Source: Wenzhouxiangella sediminis
GTDB lineage: Bacteria > Pseudomonadota > Gammaproteobacteria > Xanthomonadales > Wenzhouxiangellaceae
DNA: 64,000 nucleotides
Direction of reading: 5' to 3'
Assembly: GCF_003410055.1 (NCBI RefSeq)
Contig: NZ_QUZK01000038.1
Span: 1-64,000, forward strand
In this document: piece by piece, positions 1,973 to 52,048 of the stretch
Position numbering within the stretch: position 1 is the first letter of the stretch
How the letters are laid out: each line of letters begins with the position of its first letter
Translations under genes and position numbers: made by a program
Notes under the pieces: model-generated
What the model saw: the letters and a program-made list of their open reading frames with translations, nothing else
What the model was told of the DNA's origin: nothing
The model's database searches: none

Positions 1973-2130
1973 GTCCACAGATGAACACAGATCAACACAG
2001 ATAAGAACGTATAAAGAAACCACCGGCTCCCATCGCCAGTGGCGCCAAGGGATTGCAGTTCAGGCGCCTACTGTTGCCGGAGGTACTCCCGGCAAGATAA
2101 ATCTGTGTTTATCTGTGTTCATCTGTGGAC
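1973..2130. mobile_element. MITE-like element with 30-bp inverted arms (copy A, no ORF)
   Basis: The left arm 1973-2002 starts GTCC and then carries ACAGAT three times at 10-bp spacing (linkers GAAC and CAAC). The right arm 2101-2130 is the inverted form, ATCTGTG three times and ending GGAC. The right arm is base-for-base identical to the right arm at 35304-35333. The 98 bp between the arms hold no ORF. The element fills most of the aroC-asd spacer and ends 33 bases before the asd ATG. It looks like a non-autonomous derivative of the GxxExxY-bearing copy. No clear target-site duplication is visible. Confidence 0.7.
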
Positions 2131-33655: not shown

Positions 33656-33798
33656 AAACCCAAAGACGCGAAGACGCAAAGAGTTGAATGAATGGTCGCG
33701 TTCGTCGGCCACCACTGCAGTCCGGCAGACCCTGTTTGGCTCCGTCGCAACTGGTCCGTTTTTTCGTTTTCTTCGCGTCTTTGCGTCTTTGCGTTCAA
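33656..33798. repeat. Inverted AAAGACGC arms flanking a short spacer (family 2 element)
   Basis: AAAGACGC, GAAGACGC and AAAG follow one another at 33662-33681 with 8-bp period; the inverted form CTTCGCGTCTTTGCGTCTTTGCGTT lies at 33771-33795 (given here in pieces of the same unit). About 90 bp of unique sequence separates them. It occupies the ssb-rmlB spacer and ends 18 bases before rmlB. Confidence 0.7.
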
Positions 33799-34886: not shown

Positions 34887-35333
34887 GTCCACAGATGAAC
34901 ACAGATGAACACAGATTAAAGAAGATCTAATGTCTGTGAAGCTTTCTAGAAAGGTAATTGGTTGTTGCTATGAAGTCAGCAATACTCTGGGGGCGGGGTT
35001 TCTGGAGAATGTCTACGAGAATGCCCTGTCCGTAGAGTTGGAGCGACAAGAACTCGCATACCGCCGCCAGGTGCCCCTGGAAGTCTGCTACAAGGGGGAG
35101 ACTGTAGGACGTTATCAGCCTGACTTTCTGGTGGACAATCAATTGATTGTCGAGATCAAGGCCGTGAGCGACTTGTCAGGTGAACATCAGTCTCAATTGC
35201 TGAACTACTTGAGGGCAACAGGGCTTGATATTGGTCTACTCGTCAATTTCGGAAGGCCGCGAATTCAGGTAAAACGCCTGGTTAACTGAGTTTTTGTTTT
35301 TTTATCTGTGTTTATCTGTGTTCATCTGTGGAC
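34887..35333. mobile_element. GxxExxY-bearing element with 30-bp inverted arms (copy B)
   Basis: The left arm 34887-34916 is GTCC plus ACAGAT three times at 10-bp period joined by GAAC. The right arm 35304-35333 is its inverse, 29 of 30 positions matching. Between the arms is one ORF, for a GxxExxY protein, 14 bases inside the left arm and 14 inside the right. The insert splits rmlB from rmlA, genes normally in one operon, and its composition is much lower in GC than its surroundings. Copy A at 1973-2130 has the same arms and no ORF. No target-site duplication is evident. Confidence 0.75.
34930..35289 (+). CDS. GxxExxY protein, PD-(D/E)XK nuclease-like
   Basis: A 119-residue protein of the GxxExxY family (TIGR04256; PD-(D/E)XK nuclease superfamily, PF13366), whose function is not established. 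The name motif is G23-F-L-E26-N-V-Y29. The nuclease-like core is D65 in QPDF, then E75-x-K77 in VEIKA, and a QLLNYL (89-94) helix that matches the Q-x6-type motif of some PD-(D/E)XK enzymes. No DNA-binding or transposase domain is seen. Codon use is A/T-richer than its neighbours, and ACAGATGAAC inverted arms frame the gene closely. I infer a role in the mobility or maintenance of that element, not shown. Confidence 0.9.
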   Translation: MSVKLSRKVIGCCYEVSNTLGAGFLENVYENALSVELERQELAYRRQVPLEVCYKGETVGRYQPDFLVDNQLIVEIKAVSDLSGEHQSQLLNYLRATGLDIGLLVNFGRPRIQVKRLVN

Positions 35334-40086: not shown

Positions 40087-40183
40087 AAGGATTTCTCGCA
40101 AAGGCGCGAAGGCGCAAAGGTCGCAATGGAAAAAGAAAGAAAAATCCTTGCGTCCGTCGCGCCTTTGCGCCGTTGCGAGAAAC
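40087..40183. repeat. Inverted AAAGGCGC arms (family 2 element)
   Basis: TCTCGCAAAGGCGCGAAGG at 40094-40112 (unit AAAGGCGC, 8-bp period) is repeated inverted at 40157-40182 as GCGCCTTTGCGC and CGTTGCGAGA. AAGGATTT near 40088 pairs with AAAATCCTT at 40141. It sits between two convergent genes. Confidence 0.65.
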
Positions 40184-47725: not shown

Positions 47726-47775
47726 TGGCGGCTTCCGGTTGGCGATGCGGGTGATTGTAGCGCTAGGGCCTGATA

Positions 47776-47817
47776 GGTTTCAGGTTTCAGGTTTCAGGTT
47801 TCAGGTTTCAGGTTTCA
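47776..47817. repeat. GGTTTCA heptamer array, 6 units
   Basis: Six perfect GGTTTCA units, the reverse of the CCTGAAA family, followed by GG. Confidence 0.95.
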
Positions 47818-48011
47818 GGAAAAGAACCGCGCTGTTGCCCCGGACTTGATCCGGGGCCTTCCATCAGTTGGCGCCTCCGGTTGAAAGGTCCCGGCTCGGG
47901 GGCCGGGACGACGGTGCTTTTGTTGTTTTCCCGAACCCCGAACCCGGAACCCCGAACACCCCGCCCCCGAGCCATCGCGGCGAAGCCGCCCACCCGCGCA
48001 AGCAGTTGCCG

Positions 48012-48039
48012 CCTGAAACCTGAACCCTGAAACCTGAAA
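48012..48039. repeat. CCTGAAA heptamer array, 4 units
   Basis: Three perfect CCTGAAA units and one CCTGAAC, ending in CCTAG; inverted relative to 47776-47817. Confidence 0.9.
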
Positions 48040-48080
48040 CCTAGCGCATTCGGCAACGCACTCGCGGCTTCGCCAAGTGC

Positions 48081-51823: not shown

Positions 51824-52010
51824 AAAACCTTTAAAACGCAAAGACGCTAAGCAGCAAAGAACGCGAAGAAAACCCAAGAAAATAATGGAATTCGATTCGA
51901 ATTTCCCGAATCGCGAAGCGGCCTAAGTGCTTGTTTTAAAATTCTATTTGATCTTTTATTCTTTACCTTTGCGTTCTTTGCCGCTTTGCGTCTTTGCGTT
52001 TTAAAGATTT
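51824..52010. repeat. Inverted 35-bp arms, best copy of the AAAGACGC family
   Basis: Left arm near 51824-51873 (CTTTAAAACGCAAAGACGC then CGCGAAGAAAA) and right arm near 51961-52010 (CTTTGCGTCTTTGCG then GTTTTAAAGATTTT) are inverted copies over about 35 bases with few mismatches. About 87 AT-rich bases lie between them. It occupies the rpmA-obgE spacer, splitting a normally continuous operon, and contains no ORF. Confidence 0.75.
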
Positions 52011-52048
52011 TGCTGCCTTCAGCCCCCGCCAACCCCACTACGACCGAG

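What the first reader, a model, noticed from the sequence alone, without database searches (positions are those of the whole stretch)
34887..35333. GxxExxY protein gene framed by 30-bp iteron-type inverted arms, inserted in the rml operon
Seen: arms GTCC plus three ACAGAT units at 10-bp period, inverted at the other end (29/30 match). The only ORF encodes a GxxExxY protein with a PD-(D/E)XK-like core (D65, E75, K77), AT-rich, splitting rmlB from rmlA. No transposase is present. Known: GxxExxY proteins are widespread, sometimes multi-copy and of unknown function. Inference: the arms and the nuclease-like protein form a mobile element of an undescribed type, with the protein acting on the repeat arms.
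Basis: partly seen in the sequence, partly recalled or inferred. Interest (0 to 1): 0.8.

Follow-up and report, generated by a model that had tools for sequence, protein, structure and literature searches.

The report
Nuclease gene in private iteron arms
A widespread bacterial nuclease-like gene of unknown function sits between matched inverted arms of short repeats, and many gene-less copies of those arms are scattered through the genome, which points to an undescribed kind of dispersed genetic element.

Summary
At 34887-35333 a GxxExxY gene lies in inverted arms of three 10-bp iterons between rmlB and rmlA. It is no local oddity: the genome has 16 gene-less two-armed copies, and its other two GxxExxY genes have their own, different arms. 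In loci from about 14 phyla, 54 of 76 such genes have inverted arms against 5 of 251 neighbours, three of the five being GxxExxY genes; a second sample gave 24 of 29. The unit is CRCNRAK, spaced 8-10 bp. S23/IVS genes show the layout with 7-bp units. Arms persist while inner DNA drifts, and is flipped in place at 5 of 10 comparable sites. The gene looks vertically kept. Best reading: a REPIN/RAYT-like system run by a PD-(D/E)XK nuclease. That the protein acts on the arms is inferred: orphan arms thrive in genomes without the gene, and at both orphan sites checked in one gene-bearing relative they are lost or decayed.

The parts
34887..35333 (+). whole element: left arm, GxxExxY gene, right arm
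   Evidence: complete in G000 and G009, internally deleted in G024
34887..34916 (+). left arm: GTCC + three ACAGAT units at 10-bp period
35304..35333 (-). right arm, inverted copy, 1 mismatch in 30
34930..35289 (+). GxxExxY / PDDEXK_3 protein, 119 aa, D65 E75 K77 Q89 conserved
1973..2130 (.). gene-less element with the same ACAGAT arms (158 bp)
33657..33795 (.). gene-less inverted arm pair, AAAGACGC/CGCGAAG units, upstream of rmlB
40092..40182 (.). gene-less inverted arm pair, CGCAAAGG/CGCGAAGG units (by eye the unit type of the L003 GxxExxY gene)
51824..52011 (.). gene-less inverted arm pair whose arms match those of the genome's second GxxExxY gene (L002)
   Evidence: 48 bp at 95.8%
47774..48043 (.). 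gene-less inverted pair of 7-bp AGGTTTC tandem arms, the type that flanks the S23-family gene L052 of the same genome

Best explanation
GxxExxY genes are the protein-coding members of a family of dispersed, vertically inherited iteron-armed elements. Shown: a gene and two matched inverted arms form a unit. The arms are runs of a 7-mer CRCNRAK at 8-10 bp spacing, pointing inward, usually three or four copies. Genes of one genome have different arm flavours. Gene-less arm pairs of a flavour are scattered through the genome. Arms outlast the inner DNA, and the inner DNA is often flipped in place. Inferred: the PD-(D/E)XK protein binds its own iterons in a row and cuts the cruciform or hairpin that paired arms can form. 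Faulty resolution or re-joining gives inversion, rare duplication and internal deletion, and so makes gene-less derivatives that are served in trans. It would work like RAYT/REPIN, with a junction-type nuclease in place of the HUH transposase.
For: Association: 54 of 76 loci vs 5 of 251 genes (3 of the 5 are other GxxExxY genes and 1 shares the arm); 24 of 29 vs 0 of 48 window genes; inward CRCNRAK pairs 57 of 76 and 17 of 29 vs 1 of 248 controls and 0 of 31 S23 genes. Matched ends: same-locus arm score 21.8 vs 10.3 between loci, for the 78 loci with arms. The 3 GxxExxY genes of this genome have different arms. Protein identity tracks arm similarity among 30 loci of this genome and relatives, r=0.64, 0 of 2000 permutations (many are orthologues, so not independent). 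At one site gene and arms differ together: L075 is 31-38% identical to the other four proteins compared there, with CACCGAA arms. Genomes with the gene carry CACAGAG-type arms more often: 18 of 35 vs 13 of 194, OR 14.7. At 11 orthologous pairs arms are 89%, flanks 83% and inner 40% identical (inner aligned in one direction only). Inversion in place at 5 of 10 sites with detectable inner homology. A whole-element second copy in G010. In-frame internal deletion between arms at the rml site of G024. dN/dS 0.04-0.20 in the 9 of 12 pairs with finite dS, only 4 of them with dS below 1. Weak profile similarity to Cas4 (best E 0.0016, 23 of 47 members; cut-off not shown), phage endonuclease I (E 0.0097) and TnsA (E 0.099), the last two below cut-off.
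Against: Orphan arms abound without any PF13366 gene: 11 of the 13 arm-bearing class genomes without TIGR04256 were searched at E<=5 and none has a hit over the cut-off. G010 has 62 ACAGAT hits, but its one GxxExxY gene has other arms. G009 has the gene, yet of two orphan sites examined one is lost and one decayed. Protein-arm correlation is absent in the wide set (r=0.03, 655 of 2000 permutations reach it), which was selected for similar proteins. Gene-bearing elements are not seen inverted: 0 of 21 comparisons within syntenic groups, by my reading of strands. No target duplication or exact ancestral empty site could be defined. 22 of 76, 5 of 29 and 3 of 31 loci lack arms by the alignment test. 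No binding or cutting data; no structure.
Confidence: 0.5

Rival explanations
1. Passenger model: the arm pairs are host or selfish repeats maintained by something else (homologous recombination, RNA-level processing, a host DNA-binding protein). GxxExxY genes are cargo that uses them as a safe home.
For: Genomes rich in arms with no gene; gene present while two orphan sites checked in G009 are lost or decayed; S23-family genes, a different protein family, show the same layout.
Against: The unit CRCNRAK is specific to GxxExxY (57 of 76) and absent round S23 genes (0 of 31). Gene and arms differ together at one site. Arm-bearing genomes are enriched for the gene.
Confidence: 0.25
2. RNA-level element, like the 23S rRNA intervening sequence: the arms pair in the transcript and are cut by RNase III, which makes insertion in a gene cluster harmless. 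The protein is an RNA nuclease or a maintenance factor.
For: The S23p element in Coxiella 23S rRNA has a 28-bp inverted-repeat stem and is excised by RNase III (PMC4990558, passages read). Arms of a locus match each other. The element sits inside the rml gene cluster.
Against: In 14 ACAGAT elements of G000 the two arms of an element differ more (1.5 mismatches) than arms of different elements do (1.15); this was not so in a second set. Regularly spaced tandem units are not needed for a stem (general knowledge).
Confidence: 0.15
3. The arms are operators: iterons for autoregulation of the gene, and the dispersed pairs are its regulon.
For: Iteron-like spacing of 8-10 bp.
Against: Units point inward on both sides of the gene at 57 of 76 loci. 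The 16 gene-less copies in G000 keep the two-armed form at 134-298 bp. A PD-(D/E)XK active site is conserved.
Confidence: 0.06
4. Short tandem repeats expand by slippage in this genus, and the inverted layout is chance.
For: One-directional heptamer arrays occur at rmlB-rmlA in G010, G018 and G021 (by eye).
Against: Inverted pairs around GxxExxY in loci from about 14 phyla; controls 5 of 251 and 0 of 48.
Confidence: 0.02

Closest known systems
REPIN / RAYT (REP-associated tyrosine transposase) system
   Same: Distinct single-copy genes, each with its own repeat flavour beside it; gene-less inverted repeat pairs scattered in the genome; strong conservation of the two repeats; gene phylogeny largely congruent with species at species level (PMC3116915, passages read). 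A variable middle part of REPINs is recalled, not read.
   Different: The protein is a PD-(D/E)XK nuclease-like family, not an HUH tyrosine transposase. Arms are tandem 7-mers at 8-10 bp spacing, not short imperfect palindromes. Gene-bearing elements have arms on both sides.
23S rRNA intervening sequence (IVS) with S23p ORF
   Same: A 428-nt element with one small ORF between long inverted repeats, described as selfish (PMC4990558, passages read). S23-family genes elsewhere were found here in inverted arms too.
   Different: Different protein family. S23 arms have 7-bp units (23 of 25), and CRCNRAK arms occur at 0 of 31 S23 loci.
Convergent heptamer repeat pairs of Xanthomonas (GGGAATC)
   Same: 70 and 75 inverted pairs of short tandem arrays in two genomes, the pair type usually preserved between them (PMC4692102, passages read).
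   Different: No cognate gene was proposed in the passages read; the heptamer is G4-forming.
MITEs
   Same: Short, gene-less, inverted ends; an internal-deletion form of a gene-bearing copy exists (L229).
   Different: No transposase and no target duplication seen; inner sequences of the 17 copies in G000 are unrelated.

Membership tests
GxxExxY protein (TIGR04256 / PF13366) | profile score above curated cut-off | tested here: met
   148.7 vs 35 bits; 143.1 vs 22 bits
GxxExxY protein (TIGR04256 / PF13366) | GxxExxY and D-ExK motifs | tested here: met
   G23, E26, Y29, D65, E75, K77 invariant in A1; Y29 and E75 only nearly invariant in A3
REPIN/RAYT | cognate gene is an HUH tyrosine transposase | tested here: not met
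   the gene in the arms is PDDEXK_3; no RAYT search of the genome was made
REPIN/RAYT | many dispersed inverted repeat pairs matching the repeat beside the gene | tested here: met
   72 hits, 17 two-armed elements in G000
REPIN/RAYT | gene does not self-duplicate; each copy distinct | tested here: met
   18 within-genome pairs from 9 genomes or contigs, maximum 58% identity; not all paralogues found were compared
Insertion sequence / MITE | transposase and target-site duplication | tested here: not met
   only the GxxExxY ORF inside; no duplication visible by eye in the flanks
Insertion sequence / MITE | copies share internal sequence | tested here: not met
   17 inners in G000, best cross match 13 bp, E 0.005; one exception in G010, L211 vs the L043/L212 element
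23S rRNA IVS / S23 | S23 (PF05635) ORF | tested here: not met
   only PF13366 is reported for the protein at E<=0.001
Holliday-junction or cruciform nuclease | cleaves four-way junctions | not testable with these tools
   only weak profile similarity to phage endonuclease I, E 0.0097, below cut-off

The most novel reading that the evidence does not exclude
GxxExxY and S23/IVS proteins are two unrelated drivers of one undescribed superclass of iteron-armed, in-place invertible elements. Each protein lineage reads its own short-period code: CRCNRAK every 8-10 bp for the nuclease, 7-bp units for the four-helix bundle. Each maintains a dispersed population of gene-less arm pairs in trans across Bacteria and Archaea.
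Probability: 0.35. Interest if true: 0.92.

Novelty: new variant of a known kind. Interest (0 to 1): 0.8.

Why it matters
Two widespread families annotated only as 'GxxExxY protein' and 'four helix bundle protein' gain a concrete, testable context: each has a private repeat code on both sides of the gene, and gene-less copies of the arms exist. It would add a nuclease-based counterpart to RAYT/REPIN, explain intergenic repeats of the CACAGAG and GCAAAGACGC types, and give genomes an unrecognised source of in-place inversion between genes. The arm-protein pairing makes DNA-recognition experiments direct.

Tried and rejected
Horizontal mobile element: judged unlikely on phage and plasmid counts (one family member as query, E<=1e-5), one locus found in viral contigs (pattern-limited) and synteny. 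One paper lists a GxxExxY protein in an algal virus genome (PMC12085832, one passage read), so the family is not wholly absent from viruses. MITE copies by transposition: inner sequences in G000 are unrelated, though one whole-element duplication exists in G010 (L211 vs L043/L212). Exact empty site and target duplication: sought at rml, the L211 site and L041 in G009. The first two are too diverged; the third looks like a deletion leaving part of the right arm, not an ancestral empty site. Gene presence as driver of arm number: not supported within the genus. End asymmetry at the spacer between units 2 and 3: seen in G000 (14 elements; 99.98% of shuffled pairings gave as few or fewer mismatches than the true pairing), not significant in the G010/G024/G021 set (15 elements, P 0.446); left unexplained. 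Neighbour-gene orientation of elements: dropped, since long antisense ORFs in this G+C-rich DNA make it unreliable. Gene-less arms in class genomes: only listed, not analysed further. No solved-structure relative by sequence (E<=1). No Rfam family in 1500-36500. PADLOC (best Cas4, E 2e-4, for L083) and PHROGs gave only weak hits. The other arm-flanked protein L089:717-1178 has no Pfam family. The structure model never finished (ticket, last asked), so no fold search was made. Literature searches found no description of the gene-arm link; one search listed two papers, of which one passage each was read, and the one paper listed (satellite DNA by its title) was not opened.

Full report
WHAT IS THERE. 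The insert at 34887-35333 is as described. Two arms of GTCC plus three ACAGAT units at 10-bp period, 29 of 30 matched, enclose one 119-aa ORF that is a clear GxxExxY protein. It lies between rmlB and rmlA of an rmlBACD cluster.

THE ARMS ARE A DISPERSED FAMILY. In the whole genome (G000, 3.5 Mb) the 16-mer of the arm has 72 hits at up to two mismatches and none when read backwards. They resolve into 17 two-armed elements, 16 of them without a gene (134-298 bp), plus three one-armed sites. Two of those three, L040 and L048, lie at contig ends and match the two halves of one G010 element, so they are probably one split element. Inner sequences are unrelated. The window itself holds a second copy at 1973-2130 and other inverted short-period arm pairs at 33657-33795, 40092-40182, 51824-52011 and 47774-48043.

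EACH GENE HAS ITS OWN ARMS. The genome has three GxxExxY genes, each in inverted arms of a different unit. Of 31 GxxExxY loci measured in this genome and its relatives, 28 have inverted arms scoring 14 or more, against a maximum of 12 in shuffles. One of the 28, L056, has its match 150-180 bp from the gene with an unrelated unit; L059 was at a contig edge and dropped. Many of these loci are orthologues and four hold decayed genes. In 80 loci from named genome records (the best 80 of a capped list, found with an alignment of similar proteins), from about 14 phyla by my reading of the record titles and including two archaeal loci, 54 of 76 score 14 or more (4 at edges dropped), against 5 of 251 neighbouring genes. 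Three of those five are other GxxExxY genes and one shares the arm. Among size-matched controls it is 4 of 77, the same three plus L089. A sample drawn evenly from the class gave 24 of 29 (one locus per genome, 29 of 34 other genomes with a match), with 0 of 48 control genes of the window.

THE UNIT. In 86 loci scoring 13 or more (two dropped for stop codons in the match) arms share a 7-mer CRCNRAK: CACAGAG, CACGGAG, CGCAGAT, CGCAAAG and others. Units are spaced 8, 9 or 10 bp apart (107, 86, 51 cases; 12 cases at 11-12). Two such units pointing inward on both sides occur at 57 of 76 and 17 of 29 loci, at 1 of 248 controls and at 0 of 31 S23 loci; both sides outward occur at 6 of 76, 0 of 29 and 5 of 248. 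The motif was read from the relatives and the wide set, so the class set is the fairer test. The two arms of a locus match each other much better than arms of other loci (mean 21.8 vs 10.3 for 78 loci; own partner ranks first for 35 of them). Arm similarity follows protein identity among relatives (30 loci, r=0.64, 0 of 2000 permutations) but not in the wide set (56 loci, r=0.03, 655 of 2000), which was chosen for similar proteins. A few loci have other units, such as AATCCTG in L291.

A SECOND PROTEIN FAMILY. S23/23S-IVS four-helix-bundle genes (PF05635; in 46 of 229 class genomes) also lie in inverted arms: 21 of 31 loci score 14 or more, with a best period of 7 in 23 of the 25 scoring 13 or more. 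Their heptamers differ from locus to locus. One of the two in this genome, L051, has no arms by this test (score 8).

HISTORY. Of 20 G010 loci with ACAGAT arms, 14 match a G000 element locus by their flanks (my notebook first said 15). Over 11 orthologous pairs arms are 89%, flanks 83% and inner 40% identical, the inner aligned in one direction only. Among 57 elements fetched from six genomes there are 43 orthologous pairs; inner homology can be seen in 15 of them, at 10 sites. It runs in the same direction at 5 sites, one of them the gene-bearing rml site, and is inverted in place at 5. The clearest is L043/L212, inverted score 374 vs 26, where the inner is 91% identical. G010 also has a second copy of that element at another site, L211. 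Gene-bearing elements keep their direction in 21 of 21 comparisons within syntenic groups, by my reading of strands. The rml insert is complete in G000 and G009. In G024 the same site holds the element with an in-frame deletion of 177 bp, leaving 60 codons between the arms. It is absent from the short rmlB-rmlA gaps (5-58 bp) of G010, G021, G015, G022, G011, G013, G019, G005 and G006 and from those of the eight outgroup genomes whose gap could be read; other relatives carry other repeats or, by eye, decayed arms there. Since G024 (85-87% identical) has it and G010 (88%) does not, loss is likely in some lineages. Six decayed genes examined all keep arms (scores 14-19).

LIFESTYLE. The gene is under purifying selection: dN/dS 0.04-0.20 in the 9 of 12 pairs with finite dS, of which four have dS below 1. 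Paralogues in a genome are at most 58% identical over 18 pairs. One member used as query found no phage record of 50,697 and 8 plasmid records of 72,556; one viral contig locus was found. A paper lists one in an algal virus (PMC12085832, one passage). At one site in the genus a different subfamily with different arms stands in place of the usual one: L075, 31-38% identical to the other four proteins compared there.

GENE AND ARMS ACROSS GENOMES. In 229 class genomes 35 have the gene and 31 have a triple unit starting with CACAGAG; 18 have both (counted by me from the two lists; odds ratio 14.7, p 1.4e-9). The reversed control pattern hit 11 times in four genomes, 8 of them in G193, where hits do not exceed control. 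Against a simple driver model: 11 of the 13 arm-only genomes were re-searched with PF13366 at E<=5, and none has a hit over the cut-off. G010 has 62 ACAGAT hits without the cognate gene. G009 keeps the gene, but has only 2 hits of the arm 16-mer, and of two orphan sites examined one is lost and one decayed.

MECHANISM. Shown: unit structure, private matched ends, dispersal, arm conservation, inversion, internal deletion. Inferred: the protein acts on its iterons. The PD-(D/E)XK core with Q89 is conserved (E75 and Q89 nearly so in A3), and weak similarity runs to Cas4, phage endonuclease I and TnsA. Inverted arms can extrude a cruciform, a four-way junction; cutting and re-joining it would invert the middle. 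The inverted sites could in principle be assembly errors, but 30-bp arms are shorter than usual assembly words (general knowledge).

KNOWN OR NEW. It works like RAYT/REPIN (PMC3116915, passages) but fails the defining protein test. It resembles the IVS/S23p element (PMC4990558, passages) in layout. Heptamer inverted pairs were noted in Xanthomonas without a cognate gene in the passages read (PMC4692102). Searches for the family name, arm strings and related words found no description of the link; the library lacks most subscription papers and holds no bioRxiv.

Noticed in passing
L052 1420-1448 and 1881-1914; window 47774-48043: S23 four-helix-bundle gene inside inverted AGGTTTC heptamer arms, with a gene-less partner in the window; 21 of 31 S23 loci have inverted arms.
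   Followed up: partly
L089 717-1178: A 154-aa protein without Pfam family (sequence contains IVEAKGEA, nuclease-like by eye) also sits in matched CRCAGAG arms.
   Followed up: partly
L034 and L043 inner regions; L211 873-941: Inners carry other repeats: a TTCACTTTTCAC-type stretch, and a ~70-bp TTTGGAATTTG-type stretch that recurs many times in G016, G021 and G024.
   Followed up: no
rmlB-rmlA gap, L165-L182: The gap holds different short-period repeats in different species (TTCACAC, GTCAGTAG, CAACGAAC, CGCAGAT relics), which suggests an insertion hotspot.
   Followed up: partly
ACAGAT arms in G000: The spacer between units 2 and 3 differs between the two ends in 13 of 14 elements (in 12 of them G on exactly one end), so ends may be distinguishable; not significant in a second set.
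   Followed up: partly
L054, L068, L081, L065, L067: Predicted proteins read into the arms (e.g. PQIAQIRADY), so annotated N or C termini of GxxExxY proteins can be translated arm repeats (by eye).
   Followed up: no
G009:C64, L381: Beside a decayed ACAGAT arm lies an array of another unit type (CACGGAAT/CACCGAAG), as if one arm family were giving way to another (by eye).
   Followed up: no
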